DNA of 64,000 nucleotides from Gluconobacter oxydans (GTDB lineage: Bacteria; Pseudomonadota; Alphaproteobacteria; Acetobacterales; Acetobacteraceae): assembly GCF_006539685.1 (NCBI RefSeq), contig NZ_BJNM01000014.1, positions 1 through 64,000 of the forward strand, given 5' to 3'. The translations under genes and the position numbers were made by a program. Shown piece after piece: positions 37,030-43,588 of the stretch (position 1 is the stretch's first letter; every line of letters starts with the position of its first letter). The notes under the pieces were generated by a model, which saw only the letters and a list, made by a program, of their open reading frames with translations, made no database searches and was not told where the DNA came from.

Positions 37030-37057
37030 AGCCGGGTTCATAAAGAGCCCGGCTTTT
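37030..37057 (+). terminator. Rho-independent terminator after ilvE
   Basis: AGCCGGG (37030-37036) pairs with CCCGGCT (37048-37054), followed by TTT. It lies just past the ilvE stop and may also slow transcription arriving from mocA on the other strand. Confidence 0.75.
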
Positions 37058-37653
37058 CAGTCCCGGTCGATCCAGCCGGCACGAACCGCAGCATCAAGCT
37101 GCTCCGGCGTGTCGATATCGAAGCCGAGTTCGGGCGCGCAGACGCAGATCGGCGCAGTTTGCGTGTTCTTCCAGAGTTGCCGCAGGCCGGTATCGCCCTG
37201 CAGGCCTTGGATACGCTGCTGGGTTGCCGGGCTCAGCAGCACCGGAATGCCCCGCCCGTCTTCGCCATAAGACGTGATGACATCTTTCCCGTCGGCGTCC
37301 TGTTCCAGAAGAACGCGAAGATGCCGCTCGGTCAGGCAGGGCTGATCCGCCCCAGTGATCAGGAGCGGGAGGCTGCTCCCGGCGAGCGCCCGATGACCGC
37401 ATCTGAGCGATGACGCCATGCCGGTCTGCCAGTCTTCATTCTGCACCAGAACGACATCGAGCCCCGCAAGGGCCTGTCGTATCGCGGCTTCAGCACCGCC
37501 CGTCACGACAACAAGATGCTCCGGTCGTGTTGCCAGCAGGAGCCGGGCGACATGTCGCACCAGAGGGACGCCACCGATGCTCAGAAGCTGTTTGGGGCGG
37601 CCGAGACGGGTGCTTCCCCCCGCGGCCAGAAGAAGGGCGGAATGGCGTTTCAT
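37057..37653 (-). CDS. mocA: Molybdenum cofactor cytidylyltransferase-type NTP transferase
   Basis: A 198-residue MobA-like nucleotidyltransferase with the motif LLLAAGGSTRLGRPKQLL and LLITGADQPCLTERHLR. Proteins of this form next to XdhC are the MocA type, which makes molybdopterin cytosine dinucleotide for xanthine-dehydrogenase-family and quinone-linked aldehyde oxidoreductases. Its ATG overlaps the xdhC stop by four bases. A second, guanylyl-type MobA domain is at 41537 in the window, so both cofactor variants may be made. Confidence 0.85.
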   Translation of the reverse strand: MKRHSALLLAAGGSTRLGRPKQLLSIGGVPLVRHVARLLLATRPEHLVVVTGGAEAAIRQALAGLDVVLVQNEDWQTGMASSLRCGHRALAGSSLPLLITGADQPCLTERHLRVLLEQDADGKDVITSYGEDGRGIPVLLSPATQQRIQGLQGDTGLRQLWKNTQTAPICVCAPELGFDIDTPEQLDAAVRAGWIDRD

Positions 37654-38621
37654 CGGGGACGGGTCGCGATCATCTGGGTCAGGATGGAGAGCGCGATTTC
37701 CATCGGGGTCCGGGCGCCGATCTCCAGTCCTGCGGGCAGGTGCAGGCGGCTGAATGCGTCTTCCGGGACCCCGGCTGCCCTGAGGGCTTCAAGCCGGCCC
37801 GGAATCTTGCGCCGGCTTCCGAGAATGCTGACGCAGAACGCTTCGGATTTCAGGGCGTGAGCTGTAAGCGTCAGGTCCGAAAGAGCGTCGTGCGTCAGGC
37901 TGTAAACGGCCGTCCACCGATCGAGTGAGAGCGTGGGAAGGGCGGCGTCCAGACTGCCGCGGATATAGTGTGCTGGCGAGAGGCCGGGAGGCGGTTCGGG
38001 GGGGCCGTAGGGCCGGAGCAGGATAGTCTCGAGTCCCATGAGGCCGGACAGGCTCAGGAGCGCAAGCGTAATGGGATCTCCGCCAGAGAGGATCAGGCGC
38101 AGGGGCGGCAAATACTGGCGAAAGAAGCGACCTGCCTCGTTTCCGGTAGAGTATGCCTCGTCGCAGAACCGCATGTTGCCCGTGTCGAGATCGGTCAGGA
38201 GCGTGACCGGTCTGCGACTCTCCCGGGCTGTCTTAAGGGTTGCGACATGGGCCCCCAGGTCCGGCACGGCCCGCACGAAAATCCCGATGCGGCCGCCGCA
38301 GGTAAGCTGGATGTCCAGAACCGGACTGCCCGCGCCATAATCTAGCATCCGTGGCTGTCCGTCTTTCAGACACTCCAGCGCCTCTCCGCGCACGGCCGCT
38401 TCCACGCAGCCGCCGGACACATAGCCCTGAACCTCTCCGTCCTCGCAGATCGCCATTTCGCTCCCCAGCGGACGCGGGGAAGAGCCGGTGATGCTGACCA
38501 GCGTTGCCAGGACGGCGCGTTTCCCTTCAGCGGACCAGTGCTCCAGTGTGGGAAACAGGTCGTCTGTCAGGCCGTAAAGCGGCCACTGGGGAAGGGGAGA
38601 AAACTGTGCCGCGGCCGTCAT
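37650..38621 (-). CDS. xdhC: XdhC/CoxI family molybdenum cofactor insertion protein
   Basis: A 323-residue protein with the XdhC/CoxI N-terminal block (LATLVSITGSSPRPLGSEMAI, YVSGGCVEAAV) and a C-terminal Rossmann-like XdhC_C domain (LRLILSGGDPITLALLSLS, CVSILGSRRK). XdhC binds molybdenum cofactor, protects it and inserts it into molybdoenzymes, acting with MocA. No molybdoenzyme structural gene is in the window. It is divergent from moeA across a 169-base gap. Confidence 0.88.
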   Translation of the reverse strand: MTAAAQFSPLPQWPLYGLTDDLFPTLEHWSAEGKRAVLATLVSITGSSPRPLGSEMAICEDGEVQGYVSGGCVEAAVRGEALECLKDGQPRMLDYGAGSPVLDIQLTCGGRIGIFVRAVPDLGAHVATLKTARESRRPVTLLTDLDTGNMRFCDEAYSTGNEAGRFFRQYLPPLRLILSGGDPITLALLSLSGLMGLETILLRPYGPPEPPPGLSPAHYIRGSLDAALPTLSLDRWTAVYSLTHDALSDLTLTAHALKSEAFCVSILGSRRKIPGRLEALRAAGVPEDAFSRLHLPAGLEIGARTPMEIALSILTQMIATRPR

Positions 38622-38790: not shown

Positions 38791-39987
38791 ATGAGTGAAC
38801 TCCTGAGCGTTACACGGGCCATGGAGCTTGTGCTGGATTATGCCGGCAGCTTCGGGACCGAGACGGTTGATCTGACGATGGCAGCCGGGCGTATCCTCCA
38901 GCAGACGATCCGTGCCGAACGCGCCCAGCCGCCTTATGACCGTGTGATGATGGACGGCATTGCCTTCCGCCACGGGAGCGGTCCAACGCTGGTGTCGCAC
39001 GGAATCCAGCGTGCGGGGGCACCGGGGCAGCCGCTCCCGGAGGGACATGTCTGCCTCGAAGTCATGACGGGCGCCGTGCTGCCAGAGGGTGCGGACACGG
39101 TCGTTCCGGTCGAACGTCTTGTGCGTGAAGGCCGGCTGATCCGCTTTGAAGAGGGTTATGAGCCGCGCAAGGGGCAGTTCATTCATCGCCGGGGTTCCGA
39201 CTGTGCGGCGGGAACGGAGCTTCTCGCGCCAGGTCAGCGTCTTGATGGCCCCGCCCTCGCTGTTCTGGCGGGAAATGGTCATGCCCAGGTTAGCGTATCG
39301 CGGATTCCGTCCATCGGGATTGTGGCCACGGGCGATGAACTTGTGGATGTCAGCGCACCGGTACGGGACTGGGAGATCCGGCGGTCCAATGAATACGCCC
39401 TGACGGGTGCTCTGCTGTCACGCGGCTTCAACTGCATCGAACGGTCCGTCGTACCCGATGATCTCGCGGAGACGATCGTGGCCCTGCGCGAACAGCTCTC
39501 GCGTCATGACGTCCTGATCCTGAGCGGCGGCGTGTCGATGGGGGCGTTCGATCATGTTCCTAAGGCGCTGTCGAAAATCGGGGTGGAGCGGGTGTTCCAC
39601 AAGGTTGCGCAGCGTCCGGGTAAACCGCTGTGGTTTGGTGTTGGTCCCGAGGGGCAGCGTGTGTTTGGTCTGCCGGGCAATCCGGTGTCTGCCACGACCT
39701 GTGGCGTGCGTTATGTCATGCCTATGCTTCTGGCGGGGCAGGGGCTGTGCCGCCCTGAGCCTTACACGGTCATGCTCGATGCAGAGGCCGATCTGATCCC
39801 GACGCTCACCCGGTTTCTTCCAGTCAAAGTCCGCCATGACGCTACGGGACAGGCGCTCGCAACGCCATGCCCGATGCCGACCTCTGGCGATTTCAGCTTT
39901 CTGGCGTCTACGGACGGATTTGTGGAACTGCCGCGTGGTGAAGGGATGGCGCCCCGTGGAACAGCTGCGATGTTTCATGGCTGGTAA
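38791..39987 (+). CDS. moeA: Molybdopterin molybdenumtransferase
   Basis: A 398-residue MoeA that inserts molybdate into adenylylated molybdopterin. It has the N-terminal AMELVLDYAG, the PPYDRVMMDGIAF motif with the key aspartate, IGIVATGDEL, LILSGGVSMGAFDHVP, RPGKPLWFGV and FGLPGNPVSA. All domains are present at the usual length. It starts the plus-strand molybdenum cofactor operon, and its end overlaps moaA by 11 bases. Confidence 0.96.
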   Translation: MSELLSVTRAMELVLDYAGSFGTETVDLTMAAGRILQQTIRAERAQPPYDRVMMDGIAFRHGSGPTLVSHGIQRAGAPGQPLPEGHVCLEVMTGAVLPEGADTVVPVERLVREGRLIRFEEGYEPRKGQFIHRRGSDCAAGTELLAPGQRLDGPALAVLAGNGHAQVSVSRIPSIGIVATGDELVDVSAPVRDWEIRRSNEYALTGALLSRGFNCIERSVVPDDLAETIVALREQLSRHDVLILSGGVSMGAFDHVPKALSKIGVERVFHKVAQRPGKPLWFGVGPEGQRVFGLPGNPVSATTCGVRYVMPMLLAGQGLCRPEPYTVMLDAEADLIPTLTRFLPVKVRHDATGQALATPCPMPTSGDFSFLASTDGFVELPRGEGMAPRGTAAMFHGW

Positions 39988-41011
39988 CCAGACGCCAGCC
40001 CTGACCGATCGCTTCAGCCGTCCGCTGCATGATCTGCGGATTTCCGTCATGGACCGCTGCAATTTCCGCTGCCCGTACTGCATGCCGGAAGCGACCTATC
40101 ACGAGCATTTCCGCTTTCTTGAACCGAAAGAGCGCCTGAGCTTCGACGAGATCGAACGTGTGGCGCGTGTGGCGGTCTCGCTCGGTGTCCGCAAGCTGCG
40201 GCTGACGGGTGGGGAGCCATTGCTGCGTCCGAAGCTGCCAGAACTCGTAGCGCGTCTGGCGTCCATTGAGGGTGTGGAAGACATTGCCCTGACCACCAAT
40301 GGCGTCCTGCTGGAGCGGCATGTCCAGGATCTGAAAGAGGCCGGGCTGAACCGCGTGACGGTCAGTCTCGACAGTCTGGATCCGGCGGTCTTTGCGCGGA
40401 TGAGTGGCGGCCGGGCGCAGCTTGAACCGGTTCTGGAGGCTATAGAGGCAGCACAGACCATCGGTTTTTCAGGCGGTGTGAAGCTCAATACCGTTGTCCA
40501 GCGCGGACTGAACGATGCGGGTGTAGAGGCTCTGGCCGAACGCTTCCGTCATAGCGGCGTCGTGCTGCGCTTCATCGAATACATGGATGTCGGAACGCGC
40601 AATCACTGGGAGCGCGCTGAAGTCGTACCGTCGCGTGAACTGCGCGAGCGCATTGATGCCCGGTGGCCGCTCGAACCCGTGGATGCGCATTATCGTGGGG
40701 AAGTGGCCCAGCGGTATCGCTATTGCGACGGGGCTGGGGAAGTCGGCTTCATTTCTTCCGTCACGGCGCCGTTCTGCGGAGACTGTTCGCGCGCGCGGCT
40801 GTCGTCGGAAGGGCAGCTTTATACCTGCCTGTTCGCCTCGGAAGGGAGGGATCTGCGCACGCTTTTACGCAGCGATGCGGACGACGCAGCCCTGCGGGAC
40901 CTTTTGGCCGGGGTGTGGCGCCGCCGGACGGACAGGTATAGTGAGGAACGGGCTGCCTCTTCGGATGCGCCCGCACGACGCCGCATCGAGATGAACTATA
41001 TCGGCGGCTAG
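39977..41011 (+). CDS. moaA: GTP 3',8-cyclase
   Basis: A 344-residue radical SAM enzyme, the first step of molybdopterin synthesis from GTP. The SAM cluster motif CNFRCPYC follows LRISVMDR. GGEPLLRP, the C-terminal cluster cysteines in FCGDCSRARLSSEGQLYTCLF, and the ending NYIGG are complete. The frame is open back to 39836, but the family start MAGNQTPALTDRF at 39977 overlaps the moeA end, fitting translational coupling. Confidence 0.96.
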   Translation: MAGNQTPALTDRFSRPLHDLRISVMDRCNFRCPYCMPEATYHEHFRFLEPKERLSFDEIERVARVAVSLGVRKLRLTGGEPLLRPKLPELVARLASIEGVEDIALTTNGVLLERHVQDLKEAGLNRVTVSLDSLDPAVFARMSGGRAQLEPVLEAIEAAQTIGFSGGVKLNTVVQRGLNDAGVEALAERFRHSGVVLRFIEYMDVGTRNHWERAEVVPSRELRERIDARWPLEPVDAHYRGEVAQRYRYCDGAGEVGFISSVTAPFCGDCSRARLSSEGQLYTCLFASEGRDLRTLLRSDADDAALRDLLAGVWRRRTDRYSEERAASSDAPARRRIEMNYIGG

Positions 41012-41057: not shown

Positions 41058-41540
41058 ATGAAGACGCTCACCCATGTCAACGAGTGCGGCGAGGATCCGC
41101 GCATGGTCGATATCAGCGGCAAGGATGTGACGGAACGTAGCGCGCATGCCCAGGCGCGTCTGGTTTTCCCGTCCGAGATGGCGCGGACCCTGTCGGATGC
41201 CGGGTTCATGACAGCCAAGGGTGCGGTGCTGACCGTGGCGCAGATTGCAGGCGTGATGGGCGTGAAATCGACGTCGCAGCTCATTCCGCTGTGTCATCCG
41301 CTCTCCCTCAGTGGCTGCCGGGTGGACATCACAATCGAGGGTGATGAGGCGGTGATCGACTGCCGGGTCTCGTGCAAGGGGCGTACGGGCGTGGAAATGG
41401 AAGCGCTGACCGGGGCTTCCGTGGCCGCGCTCACGATCTACGACATGTGCAAGGCCATGTCCCATGACATGGTCATCCGCGAGGTCCGGCTGATGGGCAA
41501 GGCCGGCGGCAAGCGCGATTTCCAGCGGATTGAATCATGA
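41058..41540 (+). CDS. moaC: Cyclic pyranopterin monophosphate synthase
   Basis: A 160-residue MoaC. It has LTHVNECGEDPRMVDISGKDVTER at the start, the active-site LIPLCHPLSLSGCRVDI and KGRTGVEMEALTGASVAALTIYDMCKAM. It rearranges the MoaA product to cyclic pyranopterin monophosphate. It overlaps the next gene as ATGA. Confidence 0.97.
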   Translation: MKTLTHVNECGEDPRMVDISGKDVTERSAHAQARLVFPSEMARTLSDAGFMTAKGAVLTVAQIAGVMGVKSTSQLIPLCHPLSLSGCRVDITIEGDEAVIDCRVSCKGRTGVEMEALTGASVAALTIYDMCKAMSHDMVIREVRLMGKAGGKRDFQRIES

Positions 41541-42376
41541 CACCACTTTACGGCCTGATCCTTGCAGGCGGTGCCAGCAGACGCATGGGAACGGACAAGG
41601 CCGCGCTCGACTATCACGGCAAGCCGCAGCTTCAGGCGGCGTTCGAGGTTCTGACGCCTGTGGTGGAACAATGCTTCGTCTCGGTGAGGCCGGGTCAGAC
41701 GTCCGATCCGCTGCGCTCCAGCTTTCCGCAGATCGTCGATACGGTGGATGTTGACGGACCAGCGGCGGGGCTGCTGTCGGCCCATCGGGCTTATCCGGAT
41801 GTGGCCTGGCTGGTTCTGGCCTGTGATCTGCCGATGCTGGACCGTGGCACGCTCGACACCCTGATCGCCGCAAGGGATGGAGAGCATGTCGCCGTCTCCT
41901 ATCGCAGCGAGCATGATGGTCTGCCGGAACCGCTCTGCGCCATCTGGGAGCCGGAAGCGCTTGAGCGACTGGAAAAGCAGGTTGCAGGTGGCCGGATCTG
42001 TCCGCGCAAGCTGCTGATCAACAGCCCGACAAAGCTGCTGGAGCCGCATAGCCGCGGTGCGCTCGACAACATCAACACGCCGGAGGAACGCGAAGACGTG
42101 GCCCGGCGCCTGAAGGATCTGCCGGGAGGGCCGATGATTCGCCTGACACTGGAATATTTTGCGCAGTTGCGGGAACTGGCTGGAACGCGGGAGCAGTCGC
42201 TTGAGACCTCATTCGCCACTGTGGGACCGCTGTACGAGGAACTGCGTGAAAAATACGCCTTCCCGTTCGAAGCCTCGAAGCTCCGTGTGGCGATCAACGG
42301 TGATTTCGCCCCTTGGACACAGACGTTGAAGGACGGGGACCATATCGTGTTCATTCCGCCGGTGACGGGCGGATGA
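41537..42376 (+). CDS. mobA: MobA guanylyltransferase fused to MoaD sulfur carrier
   Basis: One frame of 279 codons. Residues about 1-195 are MobA (LILAGGASRRMGTDKAAL, DVDGPAAGLL, LACDLPMLD, NINTPEE), which adds GMP to molybdopterin. Residues 200-279 are a complete MoaD (MIRLTLEYFAQLRELAG to IVFIPPVTGG), ending in the diglycine that carries thiocarboxylate sulfur. The MoaD part starts with an ATG at 42134 preceded by GGGAGG five bases before, so a free MoaD can probably also be made. moaE starts within the stop. MoaD must reach MoaE and a MoeB-type enzyme, so release or flexible tethering is needed. Confidence 0.88.
   Translation: MTPLYGLILAGGASRRMGTDKAALDYHGKPQLQAAFEVLTPVVEQCFVSVRPGQTSDPLRSSFPQIVDTVDVDGPAAGLLSAHRAYPDVAWLVLACDLPMLDRGTLDTLIAARDGEHVAVSYRSEHDGLPEPLCAIWEPEALERLEKQVAGGRICPRKLLINSPTKLLEPHSRGALDNINTPEEREDVARRLKDLPGGPMIRLTLEYFAQLRELAGTREQSLETSFATVGPLYEELREKYAFPFEASKLRVAINGDFAPWTQTLKDGDHIVFIPPVTGG
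42134..42376 (+). CDS. moaD: Possible free MoaD from internal start inside mobA-moaD
   Basis: The internal ATG at 42134 is in frame with the fusion and has the strong ribosome binding site GGGAGG at 42124-42129. The product would be 80 residues, the normal size of MoaD, with the terminal GG intact. This alternative product is an inference from the site and domain boundary. A fused protein alone is the other reading. Confidence 0.5.
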   Translation: MIRLTLEYFAQLRELAGTREQSLETSFATVGPLYEELREKYAFPFEASKLRVAINGDFAPWTQTLKDGDHIVFIPPVTGG

Positions 42377-42885
42377 GCCGCTTTCGCATGGCGTCCGCAC
42401 CCGTGGATCTGAACGCGCTGCGTGAGGATCTGCATCTGGCCGTGGCAGGCGGGTTCTGCACCTTTGAAGGCTGGGTCCGCAACAGGAACGAGGGCCGTCC
42501 GGTGGATGGTCTGGAATATGAATCCTATGAGGCGCTGGCCCAGCTCGAAGGTGAGCGGATCGTGGCTGAGGCTCTGGAGCGTTTCGAGATCAGCCAGGCT
42601 GTAGCGATGCACCGCACCGGGAGCCTGAAGGTCGGGGATGTTGCGGTCTGGATCGGCGTTTCGGCGCCGCACCGGGATGCCGCGTTTCGGGCCTGTCGCT
42701 ACATCATCGACGAGATAAAGCATCGCGTGCCCGTCTGGAAGAAAGAGCACTATCTGGACGGAGATGCCGAATGGGTGGCCTGCCATCACTGCCAGACTGC
42801 TCCGCGTGCCTCGGAGACGGGGACGCATGATCACGATCATGACCATGGCCACGATCATGGAAGCTGCGGCCACCATCATCACTGA
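42373..42885 (+). CDS. moaE: Molybdopterin synthase catalytic subunit with His-rich tail
   Basis: A 170-residue MoaE. The catalytic core is normal: GGFCTFEGWVRNRNEGRPVDGLEYESY, VAMHRTGSLKVGDVAVWIGVSAPHRDAAF and HRVPVWKKEHYLDG with the essential lysines. The last 30 residues are an unusual extension holding CHHC and then a run of His/Asp/Gly (HDHDHDHGHDHG) ending in HHHH. This tail should bind divalent metals. The start overlaps the moaD stop (ATGA). Confidence 0.93.
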   Translation: MSRFRMASAPVDLNALREDLHLAVAGGFCTFEGWVRNRNEGRPVDGLEYESYEALAQLEGERIVAEALERFEISQAVAMHRTGSLKVGDVAVWIGVSAPHRDAAFRACRYIIDEIKHRVPVWKKEHYLDGDAEWVACHHCQTAPRASETGTHDHDHDHGHDHGSCGHHHH

Positions 42886-42997: not shown

Positions 42998-43588
42998 ATG
43001 ACACGGCTGTCGCTTTCCCTGTCCGACCTCTGCTGCTGTGAACGCCTCGCGCTGTGGAGTATCCGCTGCCTCATCAGCCATTACCGCTTGCCAAGCTGTC
43101 CCGAGACAAAAACGACCGACGGTCTGTTTCCCGTCTGTTTCCGCCCGGCTCTTGATGCCGCGGAAGGAGCTTTTGCGGACGCCACCCATCTTCTGAAGGT
43201 TGCGGATCAGCCGCGCCTTGCGGTGAATGCCCCGGGCATGCAGTCCCTGACGGCGCTGGAGGAACGCTTCCTGCGCGGGATCATCGCAGCCCAGAACGAG
43301 GGCCAGCGCGAAGTTTTCGTGCTTCTTGCCGAAGTCTTCCCCGACAGGTTTGTCCAGGGCTGCCTGGCCACTGCGCTGACTCTGCTGGCGGATTGTCTGG
43401 CAGGAGCCGGGCACTGGCTGCCCAAAAAACTGCTGAAAGACGAAACCACCATTTCGGGGGGAGGGGCGCTGTCTTCGATCAACCGCTGGCGGTCGGTCAG
43501 CCCGTCTCGGATGCGGGTTCTGTGGCCGCAGGATAGCGGGCCTTTACATGCTGGCATGTCGCATGATGCCAGCCGGGTGATGCACTGA
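42998..43588 (+). CDS. Unknown protein preceded by a Fur-like box
   Basis: A 196-residue protein from the ATG at 42998, with CGGAG about ten bases upstream. I do not recognise a family. The N-terminus is Cys-rich (SLSDLCCCERLALWSIRCLISH); the middle (residues about 90-140) is helical and moderately hydrophobic (FVLLAEVFPDRFVQGCLATALTLLADCLAG); the C-terminus is basic and probably disordered. There is no signal peptide. The Cys cluster and Fur-like site suggest iron-responsive expression and perhaps metal or heme binding, which is inference. The next gene overlaps its stop by one base. Confidence 0.6.
   Translation: MTRLSLSLSDLCCCERLALWSIRCLISHYRLPSCPETKTTDGLFPVCFRPALDAAEGAFADATHLLKVADQPRLAVNAPGMQSLTALEERFLRGIIAAQNEGQREVFVLLAEVFPDRFVQGCLATALTLLADCLAGAGHWLPKKLLKDETTISGGGALSSINRWRSVSPSRMRVLWPQDSGPLHAGMSHDASRVMH

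What the first reader, a model, noticed from the sequence alone, without database searches (positions are those of the whole stretch)
41537..42376. MobA-MoaD fusion with an internal ribosome site that could also release MoaD
The sulfur carrier is fused to the guanylyltransferase that acts later in the same pathway, while a GGGAGG five bases before an in-frame ATG at the domain boundary suggests that free MoaD is made too. One gene might give two products, setting carrier and transferase amounts.
Basis: partly seen in the sequence, partly recalled or inferred. Interest (0 to 1): 0.6.

Follow-up and report, generated by a model that had tools for sequence, protein, structure and literature searches.

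The report
MobA-MoaD gene with conserved inner start
In Gluconobacter two genes for making the molybdenum cofactor have merged into one, yet the second gene's own ribosome-binding site and start codon are preserved inside it, which suggests that the one gene makes both a joined protein and the small free sulfur carrier.

Summary
Window 41537-42376 (+) is one 279-aa ORF: a MobA-type nucleotidyltransferase joined to a complete MoaD ending in GG. An in-frame ATG (codon 200, 42134) sits at the domain boundary, 4 nt after GGGAGG and 5 nt after its GGAG core. In one genome this could be chance: 45 of 2094 in-frame internal ATGs pair as well. Comparison makes chance unlikely. Of 22 Gluconobacter genomes with the pathway, 20 have the fusion, and all 20 keep GGAG-N5-ATG in a linker that varies and carries a 4-codon indel. 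Gly197 is GGA in 20 of 20; of 16 invariant Gly columns only Gly279, at the overlapping moaE start, is equally fixed. Two Gluconobacter and 16 other family loci have separate mobA and moaD. Of 42 fusions labelled outside the family, none has an ATG with comparable pairing there. No separate moaD was found in this genome. Best reading: one gene, two products, MobA-MoaD and free 80-aa MoaD. No protein evidence exists. Internal starts that release a C-terminal domain are known elsewhere. I found no MobA-MoaD fusion in the papers searched.

The parts
41537..42376 (+). mobA-moaD fused ORF, 279 aa plus stop
   Evidence: no stop inside
41537..42133 (+). MobA part (codons 1-199) including the linker
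   Evidence: Pfam NTP_transf_3 at residues 6-148; PDB E. coli MobA 1e5k/1fr9 by sequence and by fold
42125..42128 (+). GGAG core of the internal Shine-Dalgarno-like site (within GGGAGG 42124-42129)
   Evidence: at -9..-6 of the inner ATG in 20 of 20 fused Gluconobacter genes
42134..42136 (+). inner in-frame ATG, proposed start of free MoaD
   Evidence: invariant in 20 of 20 fused Gluconobacter genes; aligns with, or lies within one codon of, the separate moaD starts of relatives
42134..42376 (+). MoaD reading frame from the inner start, 80 aa, ends in GG
   Evidence: Pfam ThiS; PDB MoaD 1fm0 E 9.4e-10; the first strand of the MoaD domain starts at residue 201 in the model
41537..41540 (+). ATGA overlap: mobA start on the moaC stop
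   Evidence: sequence
42373..42376 (+). ATGA overlap: moaE start on the fused gene's stop; forces codon 279 to GGA
   Evidence: sequence; GGA in 20 of 20
41058..41540 (+). moaC (neighbour)
   Evidence: Pfam MoaC
42373..42885 (+). moaE (neighbour), partner of MoaD in molybdopterin synthase
   Evidence: Pfam MoaE

Best explanation
In the Gluconobacter line mobA and the following moaD became one reading frame, but moaD's own ribosome-binding site and start codon stayed under selection. Ribosomes that begin at the mobA start make the MobA-MoaD fusion. Other ribosomes begin afresh at GGAG-N5-ATG inside the message and make free 80-aa MoaD. Both groups stop at the TGA that overlaps the moaE start, so both can feed moaE translation and keep MoaD in step with MoaE, while MobA stays lower. 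Shown by sequence: the fusion, the conserved site, the unfused relatives, no separate moaD found, the overlaps. Inferred: that ribosomes use the site, that free MoaD accumulates, and the ratio control.
For: (1) 20 of 20 fused Gluconobacter genes have GGAG at -9..-6 of the inner ATG, across a 4-codon linker indel and otherwise variable linker codons; in one species Gly198 becomes Val yet GGAG stays. (2) Codon 197 is GGA in 20 of 20 with 0 codon changes on the tree; of 16 invariant Gly columns only 197 and 279 have 0, the other 14 have 2-10, and 279 is the moaE overlap. (3) In 10 genes around the locus in 18 aligned Gluconobacter loci, 41 of 64 in-frame ATGs (gene starts included) are conserved; 3 of the 41 have an SD tetramer in 18 of 18: two ordinary gene starts and this site. 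(4) Relatives have separate moaD starting at the aligned place or one codon after it. (5) No separate moaD was found in this genome: the other two ThiS-family hits are ThiS (TIGR01683, above cut-off) and a RelA/SpoT protein (TIGR00691, above cut-off). (6) SD pairing is stronger in the 20 fused genes (mean -11.2) than in 18 separate relatives (mean -8.3), Mann-Whitney p 7e-5, not corrected for relatedness. (7) Of 42 fusions labelled outside the family, 7 have an ATG within 3 codons of the place and none of these pairs better than -6.0. (8) The linker is the weakest block of the model (mean pLDDT 64 for residues 191-200) and the first MoaD strand starts at residue 201. (9) G. oxydans 621H RBSs are reported as aGGAg, spacing 3-14 nt (PMC5756330, passages).
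Against: No protein or ribosome data. Single-genome pairing strength is not rare enough alone: 45 of 2094 internal ATGs match it. An internal ATG in moeA has a slightly better mean energy (-11.3) in the same 18 loci, though an SD tetramer in only 1 of 18. Predicted mRNA structure does not expose the site: opening energy 14.1, and 9 of 24 other internal ATGs are easier. Fusions elsewhere lack the site, so free MoaD is evidently not indispensable everywhere. Zero codon change alone is seen at 6 of 89 invariant columns of residues with four or six codons. Some outside fusions have other possible starts: a GTG five codons downstream (to -8.8, L072) or an ATG 9-15 codons upstream (to -12.0, L071), so an inner start there is not wholly excluded.
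Confidence: 0.8

Rival explanations
1. The fusion protein alone does both jobs; the inner GGAG-ATG is a relic of the once separate moaD start and is little used.
For: MobA-MoaD fusions labelled outside the family lack a comparable ATG site (0 of 42), and in 8 of the 15 such genomes searched (15 of the 42 loci) the fusion gives the only ThiS-family match, so a fused MoaD probably works there.
Against: A relic should decay; instead the site is invariant in 20 of 20 genes while the linker beside it changes and carries an indel, with zero codon changes at Gly197 against 2-10 at 14 other invariant Gly columns.
Confidence: 0.1
2. Gly-Gly and Met are kept for the protein's sake (linker turn, start of the first MoaD strand), and the SD-like string is a by-product.
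For: Gly197 and Met200 are invariant as residues and Gly198 is kept in 19 of 20.
Against: The codon, not only the residue, is fixed at 197; Gly198 is Val in one species with GGAG retained; most of the 19 outside fusions aligned have neither the Gly-Gly nor the Met (L072 has a Gly-Gly; L063 and L098 have a Met).
Confidence: 0.06
3. The SD-like string mainly slows translating ribosomes at the domain boundary to help MobA fold, with little initiation.
For: It lies just after the MobA domain and just before MoaD.
Against: Pausing needs no ATG and no fixed 5-nt spacing, yet both are fixed in 20 of 20; the ATG coincides with separate moaD starts in relatives.
Confidence: 0.04

Closest known systems
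Internal in-frame starts that release a C-terminal domain (CTP1L-type endolysins, PMC4777826, abstract and passages; archaeal Cas11b, PMC11899642, and SpaO, PMC12132427, start of abstract in listing; Spa33, PMC6925163, listing)
   Same: An in-frame start inside a gene giving full-length protein plus free C-terminal part. In endolysins an SD-like string lies in the linker, and a synonymous change near it altered the amount of the small product (PMC4777826, passages).
   Different: In the endolysin the short product is a partner of the long one. Here it would be a separate pathway protein, and the inner start appears to be an older gene's start retained through fusion. No product has been shown here.
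MoaD fusions to MoaE or MoeB (PMC11237513, passages; MoaD-MoaE also in PMC1779556, passages)
   Same: The same sulfur carrier joined to another molybdenum-cofactor protein.
   Different: In MoaD-MoaE fusions the MoaD C-terminus is not free and cleavage was proposed to be needed (PMC11237513, citing others). In MobA-MoaD the C-terminal GG stays free, so no cleavage should be needed (inference).
MobA-MobB and MoaC-MobA fusions (NCBIfam PRK14490, PRK14500)
   Same: MobA joined to another protein of the pathway; these two models are the best NCBIfam matches of the MobA half.
   Different: Different partner; scores (165.9 and 177.3) are far below the cut-offs (354 and 606) because only the MobA half matches.
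MobA-MoaD fusions of Steroidobacter-type Gammaproteobacteria and others (42 of loci L052-L106)
   Same: Same domain order and GG ending, about 50% identity.
   Different: No comparable inner ATG with SD; the 7 of them put on the tree fall apart from Gluconobacter, beside gammaproteobacterial separate genes.

Membership tests
MobA guanylyltransferase | MobA-like NTP transferase domain (Pfam PF12804) | tested here: met
   110.3 bits against cut-off 27; E. coli MobA structures are the top fold matches
MobA guanylyltransferase | NCBIfam equivalog TIGR02665 above its cut-off | tested here: not met
   83.2 bits against 151.85; so 'MobA' is by domain, fold and operon, not by that equivalog
MobA guanylyltransferase | LAGG...RMG..K loop (motif recalled, from no call) | tested here: met
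   LAGGASRRMGTDK, residues 9-21; G11, G12, R16, M17, D20 and K21 invariant in 32 aligned fusions
MobA guanylyltransferase | GTP-dependent activity on molybdopterin | not testable with these tools
   needs an assay
MoaD sulfur carrier | beta-grasp ThiS/MoaD domain (Pfam PF02597) | tested here: met
   67.1 bits against 22.5; MoaD 1fm0 E 9.4e-10
MoaD sulfur carrier | free C-terminal Gly-Gly | tested here: met
   ends PPVTGG at the stop; GG invariant in 32 aligned fusions
MoaD sulfur carrier | NCBIfam equivalog TIGR01682 above its cut-off | tested here: not met
   61.6 bits against 66.15, narrowly below (scored on the whole fusion)
MoaD sulfur carrier | next to moaE, with a MoeB-type activating enzyme in the genome | tested here: met
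   moaE overlaps the stop; two ThiF-family genes in the genome, one of which matches MoeB models best, though below their cut-offs (PRK05690 261.2 against 266)
Dual-product gene with an internal in-frame start | conserved SD and start codon inside the ORF at a domain boundary | tested here: met
   20 of 20 fused Gluconobacter genes
Dual-product gene with an internal in-frame start | both protein products detected | not testable with these tools
   needs protein or ribosome data

The most novel reading that the evidence does not exclude
A gene fusion in which selection kept both architectures at once. The Gluconobacter line gained a MobA-MoaD protein that works as a linked unit, while the preserved inner start supplies free MoaD in step with MoaE. 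Unrelated lineages that made the same fusion without such an inner start offer a natural comparison for whether tethering a carrier to a later enzyme is useful or only tolerated.
Probability: 0.4. Interest if true: 0.55.

Novelty: new member of a known kind. Interest (0 to 1): 0.42.

Why it matters
It gives a clean, testable case of how two overlapping or abutting genes can fuse while the second keeps its own product, with close unfused relatives and independently fused lineages lacking a comparable inner start as comparisons. It also warns that annotation by ORF alone will show one MobA-like protein and may appear to lack moaD.

Tried and rejected
Single-genome test of SD strength: only mildly unusual (45 of 2094 internal in-frame ATGs as good), so I did not rest on it. 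mRNA accessibility: the inner start is not unusually open, so it is no support. Separate moaD elsewhere: the other two ThiS-family hits in this genome are ThiS and a RelA/SpoT protein; rejected. Alternative inner starts: the window's GTG 12 codons upstream (-9.5) is not listed for the other 19 fused Gluconobacter genes. Some fusions outside the family have an ATG 9-15 codons upstream with good pairing (to -12.0), one a TTG 7 codons upstream (-14.9, L096), and one a GTG 5 codons downstream at -8.8 (L072); I suspect chance and the TPEE-coding string of MobA but did not test it. Papers: nine searches. 'MobA-MoaD' gave 0 papers and 'molybdenum cofactor guanylyltransferase' plus 'MoaD domain' gave 0. 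The library holds open-licence papers only, so absence from print is not shown. PMC6147048, PMC5756330, PMC2700814, PMC11237513, PMC1779556 and PMC4777826 were seen as passages only. No passage shown names a MobA-MoaD fusion; in PMC1779556 12 of 26 places were shown, 'MobA' occurs 0 times, and Gluconobacter occurs only in species lists.

Rows dropped before counts: of 46 loci L052-L094, L096, L098 and L106, four (L065, L066, L068, L090) have a stop between the domains and were left out of the 42. In one search a further set of loci showed only a MobA or only a MoaD match and enters no count. One search used wrong frames for four control genes (moeA, moaA, the gene at 42998, yihY) and one search missed some genes; both were replaced. 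In some searches the tetramers GGAG, AGGA and GAGG at -14 to -4 count as SD.

Full report
What is there. The ORF 41537-42376 (+) encodes 279 aa without a stop. Residues 6-148 match Pfam NTP_transf_3 (MobA-like) and 206-279 match ThiS/MoaD, ending PPVTGG. By sequence the two halves match E. coli MobA (1fr9, 1e5k) and MoaD (1fm0); by fold the best matches are E. coli MobA, to the MobA half. Two NCBIfam equivalogs, TIGR02665 (MobA) and TIGR01682 (MoaD), are below their cut-offs, the latter narrowly. The gene lies in the order moeA, moaA, moaC, mobA-moaD, moaE, with ATGA overlaps at both of its ends. The inner ATG is at 42134, codon 200; GGGAGG is at 42124-42129, 4 nt before it, and the GGAG core is 5 nt before it.

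Where it comes from. The window is contig 14 of a 2.7-Mb genome. The nearest named hits are Gluconobacter roseus, potus and vitians (96-97%), so it is a Gluconobacter. Of 26 genomes searched in the genus, 22 match the fusion protein and the same 22 have MoaE; the other 4 have neither. Of the 22, 20 have one open frame and 2 do not: G250 has an in-frame TAA directly before the ATG, and G317 has overlapping genes in different frames. In this genome the other two ThiS-family matches are ThiS (TIGR01683, 52.8 bits against 37.45) and a RelA/SpoT protein (TIGR00691, 691 against 499). In the other genomes the further matches show a like pattern of lengths and scores (G307 lacks the ThiS-like one) but were not examined one by one.

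Is the inner start under selection? In all 20 fused genes GGAG stands at -9..-6 of the inner ATG, although the codons around it vary and six genes lack four linker codons. Codon 197 is GGA in 20 of 20. In the 21 stretches sampled from this genome GGA is 1618 of 10546 Gly codons, although in the fused gene set itself GGA is 120 of 424. Of 16 Gly columns that are invariant, 14 show 2-10 codon changes on the tree and two show none: 197, and 279, whose GGA is forced by the overlapping moaE start. In the wider set of 89 invariant columns of residues with four or six codons, 6 show none, so a still codon alone is not rare. The combination with the fixed spacing, the ATG and the following G is the argument. 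In a second look at 10 genes in 18 aligned named Gluconobacter loci (largely the same species), 41 of 64 in-frame ATGs are conserved and 3 have an SD tetramer in 18 of 18: the moaC start, the start of the gene at window 42998, and this site. One internal ATG of moeA has a similar mean pairing energy but an SD tetramer in only 1 of 18.

Comparison outside. Where one search found both parts in other Acetobacteraceae loci, mobA and moaD are mostly separate: they overlap by 1, 4 or 13 bases as a rule, one abuts (L012) and one has a gap of about 59 bases (L016), and moaD starts at the aligned place or one codon after it. Several further loci showed only one of the two parts. One further Acetobacteraceae genome (L008) is fused, with an ATG but only -7.1 pairing. 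The 42 fused loci labelled outside the family, largely Steroidobacteraceae and other Gammaproteobacteria, have a variable linker; 7 of 42 have an ATG within 3 codons, with energies -0.9 to -6.0. The 20 Gluconobacter values run from -8.7 to -13.5. Other possible starts with better pairing but at other places occur in some of the 42 (see Tried and rejected). In 8 of the 15 of those genomes that I searched the fusion gave the only ThiS-family match; completeness of those genomes is not told. The tree (7 of the 42 included) puts Gluconobacter fusions beside Acetobacteraceae separate genes and the others beside gammaproteobacterial separate genes, so the fusion probably arose more than once. The place of G250 (L007) has weak support (0.43), so whether it never fused or split again is open.

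How it most likely works. Ribosomes from the mobA start, whose own SD pairing is weak (-4.1) and which overlaps the moaC stop, make the fusion. Others begin at the inner site and make MoaD of 80 aa. The predicted model has both domains folded and its weakest block at residues 191-200, with the first MoaD strand starting at 201, so the short product would be a whole MoaD. After fusion, translational coupling at the old mobA stop is lost; the stronger pairing in fused genes (mean -11.2 against -8.3 in 18 separate relatives) would fit a need for independent initiation, though the species are not independent data. Both products end at the moaE overlap and could feed moaE. A gene that best matches MoeB models, though under their cut-offs, is elsewhere in the genome.

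What is known. An internal start releasing a C-terminal domain is known in endolysins (PMC4777826, passages), archaeal Cas11b (PMC11899642, start of abstract in listing) and type III sorting proteins (listings). MoaD fusions to MoaE and MoeB are described (PMC11237513, passages). I found no MobA-MoaD fusion in the papers searched, in an open-licence library only.

Verdict. It is a new member of a known kind, with a good natural control.

Noticed in passing
window 42826-42882: MoaE ends in a His/Asp-rich tail (HDHDHDHGHDHGSCGHHHH), which looks metal-binding.
   Followed up: no
genomes G054, G131, G315, G180: Four of 26 Gluconobacter genomes lack both MobA-MoaD and MoaE matches, suggesting loss of the molybdenum cofactor pathway.
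   Followed up: partly
window 37057-38621 (-): A MocA-like nucleotidyltransferase and an XdhC-family gene lie on the opposite strand beside the moa genes.
   Followed up: no
window 39836-41011: The mechanical moaA ORF overlaps the end of moeA by about 50 codons; the real moaA start is probably the ATG at 39977.
   Followed up: no
L022 (genome G056): An Acetobacteraceae mobA/moaD pair groups with Dyella and Rhodanobacter genes on the tree, suggesting horizontal transfer or contamination.
   Followed up: no
L080: A contig labelled Klebsiella pneumoniae MAG carries a MobA-MoaD fusion like those of Steroidobacter-type bacteria, so the label is probably wrong.
   Followed up: no
genome G022: Two MobA-like copies with similar scores (59% and 58% identity to the query) on different contigs.
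   Followed up: no
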